DNA of 64,000 bases from Leptothermofonsia sichuanensis E412 (GTDB lineage: Bacteria > Cyanobacteriota > Cyanobacteriia > Leptolyngbyales > Leptolyngbyaceae): assembly GCF_019891175.1 (NCBI RefSeq), contig NZ_CP072600.1:124001-188000 (forward strand). Direction: 5' to 3'. Made by a program: the position numbers and the translations under genes. Positions 1,587 through 57,346 of this stretch are shown in pieces. The notes under the pieces were generated by a model, which was not told where the DNA came from, did no database searches, and saw only the letters and a list, made by a program, of their open reading frames with translations. The number at the start of each line of letters is the position of its first letter. The stretch's first letter is position 1.

Positions 1587-1655
1587 AAAGCCTATCCAAA
1601 AAGCCGTAAACGGCTAAATCTGGTACTAAACTCAGAAAGGTGTCAGATAGGCTTT
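1587..1655. repeat. 69-bp MITE-like element, copy 1
   Basis: Terminal inverted repeats AAAGCCTATC (1587-1596) and GATAGGCTTT (1646-1655) bound a 69-bp element with no coding capacity. Full copies of the same length lie at 41906-41974 and 57278-57346. The right edge overlaps the stop codon of the DUF4870 gene (1654-1656), so the element appears to have inserted exactly at that gene's 3' end. Confidence 0.7.
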
Positions 1656-24186: not shown

Positions 24187-24385
24187 GTGCATTGCGGCAG
24201 AAGTTTTTCACCCCAAAGGCACGAAGGGACACAAACGTTTTCTAACGCCTATCCGAAAACTTCCTCTAAGGCGGAAACCTTTGTGTGTTCTGGAATACCC
24301 TTTCATCCTTCTGCCTTGCGGTACCAGGCTTTACCACAGAGACACTGAGGGCACAGAGGAATGGCTTTCGGTTCCCTGTGCCTCT
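24187..24385. repeat. Decayed composite of palindromic repeats
   Basis: 24187-24240 matches the left arm of the ACTAGTGCA-ended element (compare 34804-34929), with GTGCATTGCGGCAGAAG and CAAAGGCACGAAGGGACAC. 24245-24270 matches the left 26 bp of the 69-bp element (GCCTATCCGAAAACTTCCTC), in the same position as in the nested copy at 41906. 24332-24385 is a related palindrome (ACCACAGAGACACTGAGG and CCTGTGCCTCTGG). The composite has lost its right side. It fills the gap between the cellulose synthase and GH10 genes. Confidence 0.6.
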
Positions 24386-34029: not shown

Positions 34030-34770
34030 TTACCCCTCACCCCTCACCCCTGCCCGCGCCCAGCGAGAGCTTTTCCACAGGAAAAAGAACAAAACCGCCG
34101 CAATCAGAGCACCAATACTCCATTTCAGGGCATTTTTGCGCACCTCCAGACGTTTTGTTTCATTCGCCTGGACCTGTTCTTGAACCTGCTTTTTCACCTG
34201 TTCCTGGGCCTGACTTTTAAGCTGGTTAACCCGGGTCAGGAGGTCTGCCTTTGCTTTTTCAGGATCCCGTGTGTCAAACGTGATGCCAAGATTACTGAGT
34301 TGATCTCCTAATTTTTTGATGTCTTCAGGACCGCTTTTATTTAGCTGCGCTTCAAGCTGCTGGATTTGAGTCAGAGTGGGGGCTGCCTGTCTTAAAACCT
34401 GCTGTTGAATCTGGTTGGAGTCCAGACGTGCCAGTTGAGAATCCACCTGCAAGGCCCCAATCGCTCCCAGCGGAATCAACAGCAAAAATGCGATCGCCAG
34501 TAATAACGAAAGCCAGGACATGAATGTTAACAGCGGTTTCTCAAAGGATTTGCGATCATAAAACTCACCAAAAAAGATGAGTCCAAACCCCAAGAGGGGG
34601 ACAACCACTGTCTCCACCAGTTTCCCCATAATTTGCAGCTTCCAGGCTGGTTCCGCAAAGTTAGGCGGAATAAATGTCGAAATAGCATCAATGAAGGCAA
34701 ATAACAAAAAGGCGTATCCAAGCCAGCGCAGACGATAGACTGACTGATTCCCACCGACTGACTCAGCCAT
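34030..34770 (-). CDS. HpsJ-like membrane protein
   Basis: 246 residues: three or four N-terminal membrane segments (LGYAFLLFAFIDAISTFI, VETVVVPLLGFGLIFFG, WLSLLLAIAFLLLIPLGAIG), a periplasmic coiled region (about 125-205, many Q, K and E), and a final membrane segment (WSIGALIAAVLFFFLWKSS). This layout matches the HpsJ family, named from the hormogonium polysaccharide locus of filamentous cyanobacteria. A role in surface polysaccharide or motility is possible but not shown. The cyanoexosortase pair lies upstream on the same strand, separated by a 126-bp mobile repeat. Confidence 0.65.
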   Translation of the reverse strand: MAESVGGNQSVYRLRWLGYAFLLFAFIDAISTFIPPNFAEPAWKLQIMGKLVETVVVPLLGFGLIFFGEFYDRKSFEKPLLTFMSWLSLLLAIAFLLLIPLGAIGALQVDSQLARLDSNQIQQQVLRQAAPTLTQIQQLEAQLNKSGPEDIKKLGDQLSNLGITFDTRDPEKAKADLLTRVNQLKSQAQEQVKKQVQEQVQANETKRLEVRKNALKWSIGALIAAVLFFFLWKSSRWARAGVRGEG

Positions 34771-34803
34771 GAGGCTGTCTCCTTGTGTGATTGATCAATA
34801 TGT

Positions 34804-34929
34804 ACTAGTGCATTGTGGCAGAAGTTTTTCACCACAAAGGCACGAAGGGACACAAAGTTTCTGAGTGCGCTTTGTGTCTTTGTGGTTCAACCTGAAACTG
34901 GCGGGTTATTTTCAGCAACCTGCACTAGT
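34804..34929. repeat. 126-bp element with ACTAGTGCA ends, intact copy
   Basis: Perfect 9-bp terminal inverted repeats (ACTAGTGCA at 34804-34812, complement at 34921-34929) bound an element with internal palindrome arms ACCACAAAGGCACGAAGGGA and CTTTGTGTCTTTGTGGT. No coding capacity. A second copy at 41849-42041 carries the 69-bp element inside it. Related arms occur at 24187, 50749 and 58745. Confidence 0.75.
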
Positions 34930-34941
34930 GGTCTGTCAAGA

Positions 34942-34973
34942 ATTATTTTGTGGGTTGAAAACCCCAAAATAAT
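34942..34973. repeat. Imperfect palindrome
   Basis: ATTATTTTGTGGGTT and AACCCCAAAATAAT form a near-perfect stem with one extra base and a short loop, between the mobile repeat and the exosortase-associated gene. It could act as a transcript end for the leftward exosortase genes, though no T-run is present. Confidence 0.4.
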
Positions 34974-35016
34974 AACCCTTTTCCATTCCCAGACTCACAA
35001 ATTCAAAGCTGATAAG

Positions 35017-35697
35017 TCACTGGGCAGGCGGGAAATTTAACTCCCACCAGCGATGCCAGGAGTACCAGGCATTCTCCAGGGTCTTCAATGCCTCTTCAGC
35101 CGCTACGCGATCGGGTTTTGTATTGGGGGGTAATGGCATAGACATCAATGTCCACAGGCAACGCTGATCCAGCAAAGGTTCTTGACCCAGTATCCAGGGT
35201 AATACACGACTGACCTGCAAATCATACTTATAACGGTTTTGCATAAATTGTGGTTCGGTGACCGTGCTTTCTCCACGGGGATTCACGCAGGCACTCAGGT
35301 ATAGCCGATCTTGATGGACTAACACCCCATAGTGTCCGACGCCCGTGTGGTACCTGATTTGCAGACCCGCATTGGCAGATTTGATCGGCGTATGGACAAA
35401 CAGCAAACGACTGATATTGCCATCGCTGATCATCAATCGGACTTTAACCTCTAAAGGGGTTGCCCGTTGACGATACTGGTACTGGCGACCGCGCGGCAGG
35501 TCGGCTTCCGGTTCCAATTCTGAACTGGTTTGCAGTTCCCACTCACTCAGGGAAATTTTTTCTGGTAGATTATTGGGTTGTTCTGAGATTGTTTTGACTT
35601 CATGTGTGGAGATCGCCCGACCCAGTACCCAGAGCGTACTGCCCAATACCCCTGCCAGTAAAACGAGTCGAATGGGTTTCCAGAATCCGCTAACCAT
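35017..35697 (-). CDS. Cyanoexosortase A-associated protein
   Basis: 226 residues with an N-terminal membrane anchor (IRLVLLAGVLGSTLWVLGRA) and an exported domain (about 45-225) ending in basic/aromatic DQRCLWTLMSMPL and WYSWHRWWELNFP. It matches the protein that regularly accompanies cyanoexosortase A (EpsI/DUF3485-like role). It starts 3 bp after the exosortase stop codon, a tight operon arrangement. These partners probably help exosortase process or export PEP-CTERM proteins. The precise biochemical role is unknown. Confidence 0.8.
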   Translation of the reverse strand: MVSGFWKPIRLVLLAGVLGSTLWVLGRAISTHEVKTISEQPNNLPEKISLSEWELQTSSELEPEADLPRGRQYQYRQRATPLEVKVRLMISDGNISRLLFVHTPIKSANAGLQIRYHTGVGHYGVLVHQDRLYLSACVNPRGESTVTEPQFMQNRYKYDLQVSRVLPWILGQEPLLDQRCLWTLMSMPLPPNTKPDRVAAEEALKTLENAWYSWHRWWELNFPPAQ

Positions 35698-35700
35698 AGT

Positions 35701-36552
35701 CTACCCTCCTGCCACAGGGGTTTGGGGTGGAGTGCGGAGAAAGGCAAGCCAGCAAAACAGCCCAAACAACCCCACCGAGATCATGGAAAAAATCACAGAC
35801 CCGTTACCGCTATGCCAGTATTCAAATGCGCCCTTGTTAGAAAAGGCAACCAGAATCGCCATCAACGCCACCCGTGCCGAGTTGACCCAAAATCCGATCA
35901 AAACCGCAACCACCAGACAGAGCAACTTCTTGACATCGGAATACAGGGGAAACATCAGCAGAAACAGGACTGCAATATTCACCATCAGCAGCAGGGTGTT
36001 AATGCCAGAACAGGCTCCATACACCTCAACGCGCCCGGTCTGCAAATTCAAAAACACGCCATCCTGCTGCACCTGAAAGCCGGAATACCAGAGCATAAAC
36101 ATCGCTGCTTTCGCCGTTAGCAGGGGCAGATCAATCGATTGCAGAAACACTTCCAGAACCCGATGCAGTGCCAGCAGCCCAAAAATAATGAATTCTCTCC
36201 AGTACTGCAACAGCCCTGCGAACCCCGATGCCAGCAAGCCAATGCTCAGGAGAGAGACAAACGGCAATGCCCGCAGCATGGAAGTCGAGTCTGGCAGAGC
36301 CGCGCATCTTAGCAAGATTAACCCCAGCAGGGACGCGCCCAGCAGACTGGGAACAAAGCCGCTGTCAAACGTTAATGTATGGCGCTTTTCCCACAGCAGA
36401 GAACCCGCTGCAATCCAGAACAGAAGGCTGGTAGCAAAAATTTCTTCCGACTCGTCCAGGCGATTGAGCAGTGCCAGGTGCAGAGCCGCAAAGGCAGCCG
36501 CAATGCCAAGCAACCACAGGTCTGGTTCTTGCAGGCGTTTGAGGAGATCCAT
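35701..36552 (-). CDS. Cyanoexosortase A
   Basis: A 283-residue multi-pass membrane cysteine transpeptidase of the exosortase/archaeosortase family. The catalytic triad is visible: Cys181 in VYGACSGINTL, Arg227 in FWVNSARVALM and His247 in EYWHSGNG. Exosortases recognise C-terminal PEP-CTERM sorting tails, cleave them and release or anchor proteins at the cell surface, usually together with polysaccharide export. No PEP-CTERM protein is seen in this window, so substrates must be encoded elsewhere. ATG 36552 is used. Downstream partners are the associated protein and, after a repeat, the HpsJ-like protein. Confidence 0.88.
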   Translation of the reverse strand: MDLLKRLQEPDLWLLGIAAAFAALHLALLNRLDESEEIFATSLLFWIAAGSLLWEKRHTLTFDSGFVPSLLGASLLGLILLRCAALPDSTSMLRALPFVSLLSIGLLASGFAGLLQYWREFIIFGLLALHRVLEVFLQSIDLPLLTAKAAMFMLWYSGFQVQQDGVFLNLQTGRVEVYGACSGINTLLLMVNIAVLFLLMFPLYSDVKKLLCLVVAVLIGFWVNSARVALMAILVAFSNKGAFEYWHSGNGSVIFSMISVGLFGLFCWLAFLRTPPQTPVAGG

Positions 36553-36690
36553 GGGGAAAGGTCTGAGGTGTCAGGTGTTGGGTTACAAAAGGGGCATCGG
36601 TTCAAGAGGTTGGTCTTTGATCTATCCTACCCTGGTGGTTACTGCGACCTTGCAATCAGTGCTGGACCCTGCCATCTTATCTGTAAACCC

Positions 36691-36721
36691 TATAGCCGGG
36701 GATAGGAAACAGGGGACGGGG
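36691..36721. repeat. G-rich tract next to TATAG
   Basis: TATAGCCGGGGATAGGAAAC followed by AGGGGACGGGG. Reverse-complement versions (CCCCTGTTCCCTGCTATA type) lie at 45444-45477, 46881-46928 and 53840-53880, and looser forms at 17427-17465 and 19371-19433. This is a dispersed short repeat family in spacers. Confidence 0.5.
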
Positions 36722-36791
36722 TAAAAGGAACTACCCATCCTTCACCTACGGCCCTGCGGAGACTAATGTTGTCGTACGGCATGGGGGGACT

Positions 36792-39700
36792 TTATGCACT
36801 AAAGTATTTGGCCGCCGGATGGTATGCCACGATCGCCGTGGTTGATTGCTCCGGGTACAACTGCTCACTTTCATCCATATAGAGGTTGATTCGCCTGGCA
36901 TCCAGCAGGTCCAGTTGAGTGTACTGATCCTGCATATTGGGACAGGCGGGATAGCCGAAGCTGTAGCGGGAACCCCGGTAGCGCTGGGCCAGGACATCCC
37001 GGATGTTGTCGGGGTCTTCATCACCGAAGCCCAGTTCTCGCCGAATTCGGGCATGGACCCACTCAGCTAACGCCTCTGCCAGTTGTACGGCAAGCCCGTG
37101 GAAGTAGAGGTAGTCTGTGTACTGATTTGCCTCAAACAGCTTCTTAGCATACTCCGTGGCAACCTCGCCCATCGTCACTGCCTGCATTGGGAATACATCA
37201 ATTTGTGCCGATTCCCTGGGGGCATAGAAATCAGCAATGCAGTAGCGACGCAGGGACTTTTGCCGGGGAAACTTGAAGGTGGCTACAGGGTCCGGCAACG
37301 GTGAACTGCCATTGGTTCCAACGGCAGGGTCATACACATGCAGGCTGTTTCCGTCTGCCTGACAGGGGAAATAGCCATAGATTGCCTGGGGATGGAGCAG
37401 TTTTTCTGCCACAATCCGCTGTTTCCACTCCTCCAGGATGGGATGGACCTTCTCCTGTAAGAACGCTTCGTATTCTTCCCGTGACTGCTCCCGTGGCTTC
37501 CGGAACTGCCACTGTCCGGCAATCAATGCCTGCAAGTCCAGGTACCAGAACACCTCTTCCCAGGGAATCTCTTCTGGCTGGAGTATGCGGGTACCCCAGA
37601 AGGGTGGGGTGGGACGTGGGATGTCAGTCGCGATCGCCTCTGATCGAAGGGTGTCTTCGGGGTCAGGGGTCAGGGATTGGGGATCAGGGGTCAGGGAAGA
37701 CTCCTGGCTGCCAGCCTCTGTCCCCTGTCTCCTATCTTCTCGTGTCAGACTTCCTGCTTCCTCCAAAAAACCGCTCAAATCGTCCCATTTCCCTGCGGCC
37801 TTGGCGGGCATCAGCTTATCCATAAAGTGCAGGTCAGAGAAGGCATCCTTGCCATAGATGACCCGTCCTTTGTAGGTATTCTGGCAGTCCTCATAGACAA
37901 ACTTAGGGGTGAGTGCTGCCCCTCCCAGGATGACCGGGACGGTGATACCGCGATCGTTGAACACCTCCAGGTTTTCCTTCATGAAGGCAGTGGATTTCAC
38001 CAGCAGACCACTCATGGCGATACAGTCTGCTTTGTGCTGTTCATAGGCTTCAATGATGTTTTCGACAGGTTGTTTGATGCCCAGGTTAATTACGCGGTAG
38101 CCATTATTGGACAGAATAATATCGACTAGATTCTTACCAATGTCGTGGACATCTCCTTTGACGGTGGCAATGATAAAGGTACCTTTTCCACTCCCGTCTG
38201 CTTCGGATTTCTCCATAAATGGCTCCAGGTAGGCGACGGCTGCCTTCATCGTTTCGGCGGATTGCAACACAAAGGGCAACTGCATTTGTCCGGAGCCAAA
38301 CAAATCGCCCACCACCTTCATCCCATCCAGTAGAAAGGTGTTGATGATATCCAGGGGTTTATAGGTTGCCAGAGCCTGCGTCAGAGCGTCTTCCAGCCCA
38401 ATCCGTTCGCCATCAATAATGTGGCGTTTGAGCCGTTCTTCAATCGGCAAATCGGCGAGCGAGTCTTTGGAGCGGGCATCCTTAGTGGAAACACCCTCAA
38501 ACAATGTGGTCAGTTCCGTCAGGGGATCGAAAACACAAACCTCTCCCTCAAACTGACGCTGGTCATAGATCAGTTGGCGGCAGATCTCCTGGTGTTGTGG
38601 CTCAATTTTTGCCAGGGGCAGAATTTTAGCAGCACTGACGATCGCTCCATCCATACCTGCCTGTACTGCCTCATGCAGGAACATGGAGTTCAGTACAATC
38701 CGCGCTGCTGGACTGAGACCAAAGGAAATGTTGGAAACGCCCAGAATGATATGGCATCCCGGCAGGTTTTGCCGGATCATGCGGATTGCCTCGATGGTGG
38801 CGCGTCCGTTTGCCCGGTCTTCTTCAATCCCGGTAGAAATGGGCAGCGCCAGCGGGTCAAAAAAGATTTCATAGGCAGGAATGCCAAACTCCAGTGCCTG
38901 CCGGTAAGCCCGCCGGGCAATCTGAAACTTTTTCTCTGCCGTGCGGGCCATGCCATCTTCATCAATCGTGCCGACGACCACCCCGGCACCGTACTCCCTG
39001 GCAATTTCCAGCACTTTCAGGAAGCGGGGTTCACCGTCTTCGTAATTGGTTGAGTTGAGGATGCACTTTCCCCCTGCCACCTTCAGCCCGGCTTCCATTT
39101 TTTCCCACTCGGTGGAGTCAAGCATCAGTGGCAGGTTGACATTGGTGACCAGCCGCGACACCAGTTCGCGCATATCCCGAACACCATCCCGTCCCACGTA
39201 GTCCACGTTGACATCGAGAATGTGTGCCCCTTCGCGCACCTGGGCGCGGGCAACTGAAACCAGTCCATCCCAGTCTTCTGCATTCAGCAGTTCTCGTACC
39301 TTTTTAGAACCGCTGGCGTTTAACCGCTCACCGATGATCAGGAAGGAATTGTCCTGCTCGTAGGGTTGGGCGGAGTAGATGGAAGCCGCGGCAGGGATAT
39401 AGTTGAAGGCGGGGCGGGGGGAAGGGAGAGGGGAGAGGGGGGAGGGGGAAGACAATTCTGAATGATTGCGGGTGGGGCGCTCTTTGGGTTTCAGGGATGA
39501 ACCAATCTCAGCCAGTTGTTGAATGTGTTCCGGGCGGGTACCGCAACAGCCGCCGATTACCTGTACCCCCAGGTCTTCGACAAAGCGGGTCAATGCCAGC
39601 CGCAGTTCCATTGGGGTCAGTTTGTAGTGGGCGTGCCCACCCACGTTTTCAGGAATTCCGGCGTTGGGAATGCAGGAGATGACAAAGGGGGAGTGCTGGG

Positions 39701-40427
39701 ACAGGTACTTGATATGTTCTGCCATGCGATCGGGTCCGGTGGCACAATTCAGACCCAGAATGTCGATAGGATAAGGCTCCAGAATAGTCAGCATGGCAGC
39801 CACATCAGAGCCGACCAGCATCGTGCCCTGAATTTCCATGGTGACGGACACCATGAGCGGACGGCGATCGCCCTTCTTTGCAAAAACGGACTCAATCCCG
39901 TTCAGGGCTGCCTTAATTTGCAGCACATCCTGGCAGGTTTCAACGATAAACAGGTCAACCCCACCCTCCCATAAGCCCTCCGCCTGCTCGGCAAAGCTGG
40001 CTTTCATGGTGTCATAGTCGATGTGCCCCAGGGTTGGCAGTTTGGTGGTGGGACCCATGGATCCGGCGACAAATCGGGGTTTTTCGGGGGTGGAAAATTC
40101 GGCTGCCACTTTTTTTGCCAGTTCAGCAGCCGCCTTATTCAGGGCATAGGCCTGCTCTGCCAGGTCATACTCTGCCAGGACAATGCTGGTAGCACCAAAG
40201 GTATCGGTTTCGATCACGTCTGCCCCCGCTGCCAGAAAATCCCGGTGGACTTTGGTAACGGCTTCGGGTCTGGTAAAGACCAGGTACTCGTTACAGCCCT
40301 CATACTCTGGTCCGCCAAAGTCTGCCGCTGTCAGGTTTTGGGTTTGCAGGTTGGTTCCCATCGCGCCATCGAAGACGATAACGGGGCGATCGCGATGGTG
40401 AAGCCGTTCAAGAAAGGGACTGGTCAT
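36792..40427 (-). CDS. metH: Cobalamin-dependent methionine synthase
   Basis: MetH moves the methyl group of 5-methyltetrahydrofolate through cobalamin to homocysteine. The 1211-residue protein has all four modules: homocysteine domain (1-320, zinc cysteines in [12 protein letters not shown] and [10 protein letters not shown]), pterin domain (about 370-625, [18 protein letters not shown]), B12 domain (about 690-900, [13 protein letters not shown] with the cobalt-binding His), and the AdoMet reactivation domain (about 960-1200, [20 protein letters not shown] and [12 protein letters not shown]). Two low-complexity linkers (Ser/Pro/Leu near 325-345, and Gln/Ser/Asp/Pro near 905-940) are encoded by the same G-rich tract DNA seen between genes. 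No cobalamin riboswitch was found upstream. Confidence 0.97.
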
Positions 40428-40699
40428 CAGGGTAGCCTGGGGTGAGTGATGGAAAGGGGTGCTGATTGTTTTTTAAGCGATTCAGTCAAAGTACTACGGC
40501 CCTAGAGAAAATTCATCAGGCAAACTTTATCTATCTTTAAAGATTCTGCAAAATTCCTGGCCCATGATGCAAATATTAAAGTCAAAGCTGTCTCAATTCC
40601 TCAAGGAAGGGAACCAAGAGTTACTGTCTGGGCTTTGCCCGGTAGGAAATGAGGATGGTATACCCCCCTTTCCAGCCCTTCTTTATTGATTACAGACCT

Positions 40700-41716
40700 T
40701 TATTGATTACAGATCAGGATCAGCGTTCCACTGACAGCACCCTGATCAAGCAATTCATGGGCGTGAATGGCTTCCGCCAGAGGTAAACAATCTGCAATGA
40801 CAGGTTTAATTTGCCCCCCGGCTAACAGGTTTAGCAGGATTGTCAAATCTTCTCTATACCAATCGGGATGCTTCGTTTTGTAACTGGCAATACTATAGAA
40901 ACTTGCTTTGCGAGTATCTGGAATCAGATTCAGTAACCCTACCTGAACCAGAGTGGCACCAATTGCAACCATTTTATTGCTACTGCCCTTAAAAGCAGAG
41001 AGAAATCCATAATTCACTAAGCGACCCCCCTGACACAGCAATCGGTATGACCGCCACAGGTTGAGACCTCCGATCGCATCAAACACTACATCAATGCCGC
41101 CTGTTGTCAGTTGGCGGATGCGATCGCCAAAATCTTCACTCTGGTAATCAATCGGAATGCCACCCAGTTGGGACACCAGCGCGTGTTTTGCCTGAGCCTC
41201 GGTTCCGTACATTTCTAAGCCAGCCAGTTTCCCCAATTCGAGCAGGGCAGTGCCTACCCCGCCCCCAGCTCCATGAATCAGAATTCGCTCTTCAGCCTCT
41301 ACTCTGGCAACCCGATGTAGCATCTGGTAAGCTGTCAGATAATGCAACACAACACTGACAGCTAGAATGGAGTCCGCAGACTCTGGTACCGGGACGAGAT
41401 CATGAGCGGGAATACATAAAAACTCACTGTAACCGCCTACAATAGTGAGTGCTACAACCCGTTGCCCCAGTGTAAAGTCAGAGACTTCCTGACCCAACTT
41501 ATCTATGGTGCCAACGATGTTATAGCCGGGAGAGTAGGGTAGTTCAGGCACGCCAGGATAGACACCTTCACGCATCATGACATCAGTAAATGCGACCCCC
41601 GTTGCCAGAATTTTCACCCGAACTTCACCTGCTTTTGGTTCTCGAAGTTCATCTTCAACCATTTTCAAAACATCAGGTCCCCCTGGGTGGGTAATGACAA
41701 CGTGTTTGTATTTCAT
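40700..41716 (-). CDS. MDR-family NAD(P)H:quinone oxidoreductase-like protein
   Basis: About 338 residues of the zinc-free medium-chain dehydrogenase/reductase group: N-terminal GroES-like domain (AGEVRVKILATGVAFTDVMM, LPYSPGYNIVGTIDKLGQEV) and Rossmann domain (ERILIHGAGGGVGTALLELG, cofactor glycine motif GAGGGVGTA). There are no structural zinc cysteines. It probably reduces quinones or enones with NADPH; substrate unknown. ATG 41716 fits the conserved MKYKHVVITHPGGP start; the frame is open for 18 more codons. It ends in a repeated TTTATTGATTACAGA at the 3' boundary (40681-40709). Confidence 0.85.
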   Translation of the reverse strand: MKYKHVVITHPGGPDVLKMVEDELREPKAGEVRVKILATGVAFTDVMMREGVYPGVPELPYSPGYNIVGTIDKLGQEVSDFTLGQRVVALTIVGGYSEFLCIPAHDLVPVPESADSILAVSVVLHYLTAYQMLHRVARVEAEERILIHGAGGGVGTALLELGKLAGLEMYGTEAQAKHALVSQLGGIPIDYQSEDFGDRIRQLTTGGIDVVFDAIGGLNLWRSYRLLCQGGRLVNYGFLSAFKGSSNKMVAIGATLVQVGLLNLIPDTRKASFYSIASYKTKHPDWYREDLTILLNLLAGGQIKPVIADCLPLAEAIHAHELLDQGAVSGTLILICNQ

Positions 41717-41848
41717 AATCGGCTGTCGAGTTACAGCAATAACAAAACCTGTTTCACAGTTAACTTTCAAGATAGCCTCTAACCTTGAGGAACTTGTGAG
41801 GGCTGTAATACTGGTGCAACTTTGAACCCATTGAATCTGAAGAGCACC

Positions 41849-42041
41849 AATGCATTGCGGCAGAAGTTTTTCACCACAAAGGCACGAAGGGACACAACGT
41901 TTCTTAAAGCCTATCCGAAAACTTCCTCAGTCTGGGTTTGAGCTTTGTCCATTGGGGCTTTTCGGATAGGTTTTTAGTGCGCCTGCTGTCTTTGTGGTTC
42001 AACCTGAAACTGGCGGGTTATTTTCGCCAACCTGCACTAAG
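41849..42041. repeat. 126-bp-type element carrying a nested 69-bp element
   Basis: The outer parts (TGCATTGCGGCAGAAGTTTT at 41851 and CAACCTGAAACTGGCGGGTT near 42000) match the intact copy at 34804-34929. The interior is split after GACACAACGTTTCTT by the 69-bp element (41906-41974). Outer length minus 69 bp equals that of the intact copy within 1-2 bp, so this is a genuine nested insertion. Confidence 0.75.
41906..41974. repeat. 69-bp MITE-like element, copy 2 (nested)
   Basis: Ends AAAGCCTATC (41906-41915) and GATAGGTTTT (41965-41974) with interior ACTTCCTCAGTCTGGGTTTG. Flanks TTCTTA and TTAGTGC suggest a 2-3 bp (TA or TTA) target duplication. Inserted in the larger repeat described at 41849-42041. 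Confidence 0.75.
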
Positions 42042-42081
42042 CACCTGCTGCCATAGGCCGAGTCTGCTGGTTAAATTGGTT

Positions 42082-43197
42082 TCACAAATAGCTCACCTGA
42101 TTCATCAAACCTGCCATCAAATTGATTTCTGTATGGACACTCTGGAACTTATCTGCCAGTTCCTCAAAGGTAATTTCTGCCTGTCCCTGGCAACCAATTA
42201 ACACGGCTTCATCTCCCCACCTCACGGTCTGGGGCAGGTCCGTCACATCCACGGTGGTAATGTTGAGCGACACTCGCCCCACGACTGGGCAACGATGACC
42301 GTGGATCAGAACAATGCCTTTGTTGAACAGGGAGCGGGGATAACCTTCACCAAAACCGACTGGCAGCGATGCAATTAAACTATCGCGTTGAGTGGTGTAC
42401 AGATTGCCATAACCAATCGTGCTTCCAGCAGGTACAGAGCGTACCTGAGCCACCCTGGTTTTGACTGACATCACAGGCTTTAGCTCCGACGGATTAGAAA
42501 ATGCCTGGGACGTGCGAACCCCATAGCAGGCAGCTCCCACCCTGACCAGATGATTGCGTTGAGCGGGCAGGCGTATGGTTGCGGCACTGTTATGGGTATG
42601 GGTCAGTACCCCATCTGGAAGGAAGTCGTGCAAATGGTGGCAGAGGTGATTAAAGGCTGCCAGTTGTTTTTTCGTCATTGCTAGATCTTGACCATCCGCC
42701 GTAGCAAAGTGGGTCATGACGCCGACGATACGAAGACCGGGCAATCGACAAACCTTCTGAATCTGCTCAAGTTCGGTGGTGAAAAACCCGCTTCTACCCA
42801 TGCCGGTATCAATGTTGATATGAACCGGAATTTCCTTACCCCGCCGGATCCCTGCCGTTGAGAGGTAATCTGCCACCTCCATTGAACCGACCTGTTCTTC
42901 AATCTGTAGCTGGTCGATCGATTCCTCCAGTTCTTCTGGCAATGCCATCCGCAGGCGCAGAAGTTTGACATCCAACCCCAGGCGGCGAATGGTTGCCGCT
43001 TCAGGATTGGTGCAAATCCCAATGTAGTGAGCACCTGCTGCAACAGCGGTCGGTGCCAGTGCCTCTAACCCGTGCCCATAGGCATTTGCCTTCATGACCA
43101 CACACAGTTGGGCCGGGGCAACCTGATCGCGTAGATAGCGAATATTTGCCGCAAACGCTGGTCTGGAAACCGTCACTTGAATGTGATGCTGGTTCAT
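42082..43197 (-). CDS. alr: Alanine racemase
   Basis: A PLP enzyme that interconverts L- and D-alanine for peptidoglycan. The 371-residue protein has the PLP-lysine motif VVMKANAYGHGLEALAP, the barrel residues MTHFATAD and THNSAATIRLP, the C-terminal domain catalytic Tyr region RVGAACYGVRTSQA, and GYGNLYTTQRDSLIASLPVG. Length is normal. ATG 43197 is used. It is divergent from the DUF1611 gene with 88 bp between starts, so they share a promoter region. Confidence 0.95.
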   Translation of the reverse strand: MNQHHIQVTVSRPAFAANIRYLRDQVAPAQLCVVMKANAYGHGLEALAPTAVAAGAHYIGICTNPEAATIRRLGLDVKLLRLRMALPEELEESIDQLQIEEQVGSMEVADYLSTAGIRRGKEIPVHINIDTGMGRSGFFTTELEQIQKVCRLPGLRIVGVMTHFATADGQDLAMTKKQLAAFNHLCHHLHDFLPDGVLTHTHNSAATIRLPAQRNHLVRVGAACYGVRTSQAFSNPSELKPVMSVKTRVAQVRSVPAGSTIGYGNLYTTQRDSLIASLPVGFGEGYPRSLFNKGIVLIHGHRCPVVGRVSLNITTVDVTDLPQTVRWGDEAVLIGCQGQAEITFEELADKFQSVHTEINLMAGLMNQVSYL

Positions 43198-57277: not shown

Positions 57278-57346
57278 AAAGCCTATCCGAAAAGCCCCAA
57301 CTGTTAAAGCCCAGACCCAGCCTGAGGAAGTTTTTGGATAAGCTGC
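57278..57346. repeat. 69-bp MITE-like element, copy 3 (inverted)
   Basis: AAAGCCTATC (57278-57287) to GATAAGCTGC (57337-57346); its reverse complement aligns with the interior of copy 2 (ACTTCCTCAG, GGGGCTTTTCGGATAGG). The right end overlaps the last base of the HlyD stop codon (57346-57348), so the element inserted exactly at the gene's end. Confidence 0.72.

What the first reader, a model, noticed from the sequence alone, without database searches (positions are those of the whole stretch)
41849..42041. Nested insertion of one small element in another
The 126-bp element (intact at 34804-34929) is interrupted here by the 69-bp element, and subtracting 69 bp restores the intact length within 1-2 bp. 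The remnant at 24187-24270 shows the same junction, so the composite itself has probably spread as a unit. This gives the relative age of the two families and an exact target site.
Basis: seen in the sequence. Interest (0 to 1): 0.55.

Follow-up and report, generated by a model that had tools for sequence, protein, structure and literature searches.

The report
Tiny transposon nested inside another
In this bacterial genome a 67-base non-coding jumping element has landed inside copies of a larger non-coding repeat at one and the same three-base site, and which version of the small element a copy holds no longer matches the repeat around it, as if dispersed copies exchange DNA.

Summary
The interrupted element (41851-42036, 186 bp) is the 116-bp simple element plus 70 bp: a 67-bp core (41907-41973) between two copies of TTA. 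The core is a miniature element of IS5 type: 15-bp inverted ends, and at unique sites 20 of 32 copies carry an exact 3-bp duplication (10 TAA, 9 TTA, 1 TGA), with G after TAA in 16 of 20. A related genome holds an 886-bp element with matching ends around IS5 transposase pieces. The site hit in the host repeat is the only CTTAG of its consensus, in the hairpin loop. I recovered 52 simple and 33 composite two-ended copies. Insertion happened at least twice and probably more often (both orientations, different sub-families). Plain 'spread as a unit' does not fit: in a supported 13-copy core lineage all share one orientation, yet their host arms differ as much from each other (0.129) as from simple copies (0.128). 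Host arms share old polymorphisms, often in all four combinations, which suggests gene conversion among dispersed copies; this step is inferred. No autonomous partner with these ends was found in this genome. Ordinary in kind; the decoupling is the notable part.

The parts
41851..42036 (+). Composite copy: outer repeat element interrupted by the 67-bp core
   Evidence: 186 bp between CCAA and CTAA; 85 kept two-ended outer copies comprise 52 simple, 28 composite A, 4 composite B, 1 composite unassigned
41847..41850 (.). Left flanking tetranucleotide CCAA (probably a decayed CTAG-type flank)
   Evidence: CTAG is the commonest flank, 41 left and 42 right of 85
42037..42040 (.). Right flanking tetranucleotide CTAA
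41907..41973 (.). 67-bp inner MITE with IS5-type inverted ends AAGCCTATCCGAAAA / TTTTCGGATAGGTTT, orientation A relative to the outer element
   Evidence: left end identical to that of an 886-bp IS5 element in a relative
41904..41906 (.). Left copy of the target duplication TTA
41974..41976 (.). Right copy of the target duplication TTA
34809..34924 (+). Simple (uninterrupted) outer element, 116 bp, flanked by CTAG on both sides; target triplet reads TGA
24188..24266 (+). Truncated composite: left outer arm and the first 22 bases of the core in orientation A
57279..57345 (.). Degenerate solo copy of the inner MITE, no target duplication left (AGA/CTA)
1588..1654 (.). Old solo copy of the inner MITE (CAA/TAA flanks)

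Best explanation
A 67-bp IS5-type MITE inserts at TWA, usually followed by G and often within CTWAG, and duplicates the three bases. It has inserted more than once, in both orientations, into the single CTTAG in the hairpin loop of a dispersed 116-bp repeat. SHOWN: exact junctions, target duplication, target consensus, IS5-type ends in a relative, both orientations with different core sub-families, and the lack of correlation between core and host sequence. INFERRED: the core was mobilised in trans by an IS5 transposase that I did not find here with matching ends. After a founding insertion the 'insert' allele has been passed among dispersed copies of the host repeat by homologous exchange (gene conversion), perhaps with some transposition of the composite, so that it behaves like a recombining allele in a family of repeats.
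For: Empty and filled site: TTTC-TTA-GTG in 27 of 52 simple copies against TTTC-TTA-[67]-TTA-GTG. Unique sites: 20 of 32 with exact 3-bp duplication; with TAA on top, G follows in 16 and C precedes in 11 of 20. IS5 link: 886-bp element in G006, left end identical over 15 bases, right end different in its outermost base, three IS5 transposase ORF pieces (NF033580, PF13340, PF01609); 12 of 12 sampled G018 ends lie at TWAG. More than one hit: both orientations, different sub-families; starred branches of the core tree force at least 5 label changes for orientation A and 4 for B. Descent of the largest lineage: 13 of 13 in one orientation, chance 2.4e-4 given 11:11 in solo copies. Decoupling: host distance inside that lineage 0.129 (11 copies), 0.128 to simple copies, p 0.68 for being tighter than random sets, core distance 0.043; Mantel r 0.077, p 0.32; in 25 of 28 common host polymorphisms both alleles occur with and without the insert; in 13 of 28 pairs of transversion sites all four combinations occur at least twice. 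TTC, a non-TNA allele found in 15 of 52 simple copies, is at the right junction in 6 of 32 composites and at the left in 0 of 32.
Against: No conversion event is seen directly: no sister strain with the same sites was available, and no match was found in 57 relatives. Linkage with the insert does not decay evenly: r2 0.288 at -7 bp, at most 0.027 from +4 to +10, 0.072 at +31; r2 among host sites shows no significant trend with distance. Three of 28 allele frequencies do differ between simple and composite copies by more than 0.15. Opposite orientation could in principle arise by inversion between the core's own inverted ends, and some changes on the tree may be exits of the core rather than entries. 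Two G006 copies with both ends have TTA/TAA and TAA/TTA flanks, not matching triplets. The core tree is poorly resolved (67 columns, 58 of 83 inner branches open).
Confidence: 0.72

Rival explanations
1. One insertion created the composite, which then transposed as a unit through the outer element's ends; no recombination needed.
For: The main core lineage in the outer element is scored 34 A to 4 B (one of the four, 507190, is the second member of a tandem and probably A), and one supported clade is 13 of 13 A. The 33 two-ended composites keep recognisable outer ends.
Against: Host arms of composites carry the same polymorphisms as simple copies. Mean core distance 0.069 against host 0.114; no tightness of host arms in the 13-copy lineage; orientation B composites with other core sub-families.
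Confidence: 0.2
2. Every composite is an independent insertion of the small MITE into an existing outer copy, drawn by the CTTAG site.
For: The outer CTTAG fits the target consensus. Sub-families and orientations vary. Host arms are as diverse as in simple copies. Cores identical to solo copies occur in composites.
Against: The largest supported lineage is 13 of 13 in one orientation while solo copies are 11:11. TTC at the right junction in 6 of 32 composites is not a TNA target and would need repeated identical mutation.
Confidence: 0.25
3. The 67-bp part is an original part of the larger element, and simple copies are deletions.
For: Composites are numerous: 33 of 85 kept two-ended copies.
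Against: 27 of 52 simple copies would have to have lost the core plus exactly one TTA. The core also occurs at 32 unique sites, 20 with their own duplications, and in a second host repeat. Its ends belong to an IS5 element in another genome.
Confidence: 0.02

Closest known systems
IS5-family insertion sequences and MITEs derived from them (NF033580 / PF13340 type)
   Same: 15-bp end shared with an 886-bp element carrying IS5 transposase pieces; 3-bp TNA duplication; a resident IS5 element, L319, with other ends also sits at CTAA/TAAG.
   Different: 67 bp, no coding capacity, and no full-length partner with these ends found in this genome.
REP-targeting insertion sequences (ISPsy8, ISPa11, ISPpu9, ISPpu10, ISRm19, ISRm22; PMC1525189, abstract and passages seen)
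   Same: Mobile DNA that repeatedly lands at the same position of a dispersed palindromic repeat.
   Different: There the insert is an autonomous IS, for these six always found in REPs; here it is a MITE with a short general target that the repeat happens to contain. Solo sites show no hairpin preference.
Nezha and other cyanobacterial MITEs (seen as mentions and citations in PMC10969869 and PMC3733652; otherwise recalled)
   Same: Short non-coding elements with inverted ends, dispersed in cyanobacteria (this genome is probably one).
   Different: Sequences not compared here.
Small dispersed repeats of cyanobacteria (Elhai et al. 2008; recalled, paper not held)
   Same: Very small mobile repeats, recalled as often lying inside other repeats.
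   Different: Recalled as much shorter; no sequence comparison done.

Membership tests
IS5-derived MITE (inner element) | Terminal inverted repeats shared with an autonomous-type IS5 element | tested here: met
   G006 L373 1501-2386: AAGCCTATCCGAAAAC left, GTTTTCGGATAGGCTC right, three IS5 transposase ORF pieces, so that copy itself is broken
IS5-derived MITE (inner element) | Short TNA target duplication | tested here: met
   20 of 32 unique sites exact: 10 TAA, 9 TTA, 1 TGA. That TNA typifies the IS1031-like group of IS5 is recalled
IS5-derived MITE (inner element) | Autonomous partner in the same genome | tested here: not met
   13 lone ends and 20 further stretches gave no IS with these ends; the one IS-sized pair is a core split by another IS; IS5/IS4-type loci lack such ends in pairs; best resident match to the G006 transposase 27% identity. 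End lists were capped, so a miss is possible
IS5-derived MITE (inner element) | Mobilised in trans by the transposase | not testable with these tools
   Needs a transposition assay
MITE (outer element) | Dispersed copies with constant ends at unrelated sites | tested here: met
   85 kept two-ended copies; 124 right ends
MITE (outer element) | Terminal inverted repeats of about 10 bp or more | tested here: inconclusive
   Ends match as CTAGTGCA...TGCACTAG; the arms beyond differ
MITE (outer element) | Target duplication | tested here: inconclusive
   CTAG on both sides in 21 of 85, identical tetranucleotides in 26 of 85; CTAG could be target, end, or both
REP-like loop-targeting insertion | Preference for hairpin loops at independent sites | tested here: not met
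   20 unique sites: enclosing pairs in the predicted fold 9.95 against 10.76 at 1,500 control sites, p 0.68; an earlier, less sensitive stem score gave p 0.10

The most novel reading that the evidence does not exclude
Dispersed copies of a short non-coding repeat in one bacterial chromosome exchange sequence so freely that they behave like a recombining population: an insertion made once (per lineage) is passed among existing copies by gene conversion, so one MITE multiplies inside another with little or no transposition of either.
Probability: 0.42. Interest if true: 0.62.

Novelty: new member of a known kind. Interest (0 to 1): 0.4.

Why it matters
The insert is a directional marker inside a dispersed repeat family, so it makes testable whether bacterial miniature repeats evolve as independent transposed lineages or as a gene-converting pool. 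If the second holds, copy numbers and divergences of MITEs cannot be read as transposition histories, and small inserts can multiply by homologous exchange alone. It also ties an apparently orphan MITE to an IS5 group through its ends and target.

Tried and rejected
Hairpin-loop targeting: suggested by the position of the host site. A first stem score gave p 0.10 but scored even the host hairpin low; counting predicted pairs that enclose the site, which does see the host hairpin (19-21 pairs), gave 9.95 against 10.76 in controls, p 0.68. Rejected as a general rule.

Autonomous partner in this genome: 13 lone ends with about 1.5 kb on each side; 44 loci of IS5/IS4-type transposase matches (14 of 14, 30 of 41) scanned for the ends, 18 of these loci for their own inverted ends; 20 further stretches around ends first listed. 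One IS-sized pair, 561246-562569, turned out to be a core split by another IS. tblastn of two resident transposases against the 119 stretches found nothing.

Orthologous empty site: of 15 relatives searched only G006 (75% identity) holds a close match to the neighbouring alr protein, and the oxidoreductase gene was not found beside it, so no empty site could be read. Plasmid records: no match at E 1e-3. Rfam: no family over window 34700-42200 at gathering scores. Literature: the listings showed no bacterial case of one MITE spreading inside another by gene conversion; of papers I saw listings, and abstract or passages of PMC10969869, PMC1525189, PMC3733652 and PMC3116915 only.

Rows dropped: one search set aside 7 of 92 two-ended hits (5 with doubtful ends, among them one damaged composite; 2 partial or with another insert). 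One search left out one further composite with a shifted core (4852344) and merged the unassigned one with A (84 rows); the Mantel test also left out one tandem (27 rows). Three of the 52 clustered core copies are not in the outer element. mis-oriented 833744, 836741 and 1968573 (right); one search scores 507190 as B though it is probably A; 3906984 and 3335419 are of uncertain orientation. Lists are incomplete: DNA searches scored 40 candidates, pattern searches listed 100 places. Seventeen more cores found later in 20 stretches (10 with exact duplication) are not in the clustering, tree or orientation counts.

Full report
WHAT IS THERE. The window lies at 124001-188000 of a 6.43-Mb single-contig genome. 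It is probably cyanobacterial: the octamer GCGATCGC occurs 60 times in the window and its reversed control 0 times; that this octamer marks cyanobacteria is recalled. The flagged stretch is a 116-bp dispersed repeat enlarged to 186 bp by a 67-bp core and a second TTA. It lies between two minus-strand genes that look like an alanine racemase and a quinone oxidoreductase (names by recall from the translations).

CENSUS. The composite query gave 44 matches, the simple form 40, the core 44, each with only 40 candidates scored. A right-end pattern found 124 places with up to 3 mismatches and 0 for the reversed control. From 118 fetched stretches plus search loci and the window I recovered 92 two-ended outer copies. 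Seven were set aside, leaving 52 simple and 33 composite: 28 with the core in orientation A, 4 in B, 1 unassigned. Of the core I recovered 101 end pairs, 96 with regular spacing, and 17 more later. All are lower bounds.

THE INSERTION. Composite and simple forms differ by TTA-core-TTA against one TTA; of 52 simple copies 27 read TTA at the site, 15 TTC, 5 TGA, 5 others. The 96 core copies fall into a cluster of 52 (49 of them in the outer element), 12 in a second palindromic repeat, and 32 at unique sites. At unique sites 20 of 32 have an exact 3-bp duplication: 10 TAA, 9 TTA, 1 TGA. Read with TAA on top, G follows in 16 of 20 and C precedes in 11 of 20; by my reading of that list 8 of 20 are full CTAAG. 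The outer site, read the same way, is CTAAG, by inspection the only one in the outer consensus. It sits in the loop of the predicted hairpin, but unique sites show no hairpin preference, so sequence rather than structure seems to be the target.

WHOSE ELEMENT. The ends recur elsewhere. In G006, of the same family-level group, an 886-bp element carries AAGCCTATCCGAAAAC and GTTTTCGGATAGGCTC around three ORF pieces that match the IS5 transposase model NF033580 and PF13340/PF01609. In G018 there are 28 hits to a one-base variant; all 12 sampled loci break off 49-206 bp inside the element, as expected for a multi-copy IS in a draft assembly, and 12 of 12 flanks read TWAG. A resident IS5 element (L319) with other ends also sits at CTAA/TAAG. 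Against this: the two G006 copies with both ends have TTA/TAA and TAA/TTA flanks, and resident transposases match the G006 one only at 27-35% over parts. So the core is an IS5-type MITE by ends and target, apparently without a partner here.

MORE THAN ONE HIT. Orientation B composites hold other core sub-families (GGGCAAAGCCC in 5, single copies of others), and two A composites hold further ones (1782659, 5357321). On the core tree the starred branches force at least 5 changes for the A label and 4 for B; three sets of identical cores span different hosts or solo sites. Some changes could be exits, and inversion between the core's ends could flip orientation, so I claim at least two insertions at this trinucleotide and think five or more likely.

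UNIT SPREAD TESTED. If one composite had spread intact, core and host arms should share a history. They do not: Mantel r 0.077, p 0.32, n 27; mean core distance 0.069, mean host distance 0.114. At 25 of 28 common host polymorphisms the minor-allele frequencies of simple and composite copies differ by less than 0.15; the exceptions are A/C seven bases left of the insert (r2 0.288), the target base itself (0.131) and a site at +31 (0.072). In a 13-copy core lineage (support 100/92, all in the outer element) the 11 copies with two-ended hosts have mean host distance 0.129, against 0.128 to simple copies and 0.125 among simple copies (p 0.68 for being tighter than random sets), while their cores differ by 0.043. 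Repeated independent insertion could explain that, but solo copies are oriented 11:11 and this lineage 13:0 (chance 2.4e-4). Exchange among dispersed copies explains both. In support, 13 of 28 pairs of transversion sites show all four combinations at least twice, and right junctions read TTC, a non-target allele of simple copies, in 6 of 32 composites, left junctions in 0 of 32. Against it, linkage does not fall off evenly with distance. Gene conversion therefore remains an inference.

RANGE. The composite was not found at E up to 1e-5 in 57 relatives, one of them of the same genus, nor in plasmid records. As far as searched, the expansion is confined to this lineage; with host copies about 12% apart it need not be very recent.

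VERDICT. A real, exactly defined nested insertion; its parts are new members of known kinds. The unexpected part is the decoupling of insert and host sequence, which turns the composite into a marker for recombination among miniature repeats.

Noticed in passing
L445 (G000:C1 561246-562569): Three-level nest: the second host repeat carries the core, and the core is split by a further IS of about 1.2 kb with two transposase-like ORFs (189 and 151 aa; IS630-like by recall).
   Followed up: partly
G000:C1 5933434 (locus L178): An outer copy is interrupted in its loop region by a different insert, with ACCACAGAGACACAGAGGGCACAGAGG; a second kind of nesting.
   Followed up: no
G000:C1 886410, 1329240, 2082149, 6245973 and others: A second host repeat, two palindromes (GGTGTCCAGGC.. 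and GCGGCTCTGCCGC..), carries the core between them in 12 copies; the 10 with an exact TAA/TTA duplication all share one orientation. At least six more such copies in the later stretches.
   Followed up: partly
Flanks of outer copies, e.g. window 34925-34970: 18 right and 10 left ends of 85 outer copies abut a CTAGTGGTCTGTCAAG-like repeat at a shared CTAG, as if several repeat families use the same site.
   Followed up: partly
Outer-element flanks genome-wide: Flanks other than CTAG are mostly CTGG and CCAG (43 of 170 ends; CTAG itself 83 of 170), as if CTAG decays by particular transitions.
   Followed up: no
G000:C1 507120/507190 and 3335419/3335488: Tandem pairs of the core sharing one TAA, as if a second copy landed at the first one's duplication.
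   Followed up: no
L315 895-1835: A resident IS5-type element flanked by CTA and TAG, i.e. at a CTAG site: a possible model for the unknown enzyme of the outer element.
   Followed up: no
L069-L073 (G000:C1 79406, 881062, 1854454, 592563, 833570): Another small repeat ends like the outer element (CAACCTGCACTAG in four of the five, one base different in the fifth) but has a different body.
   Followed up: no
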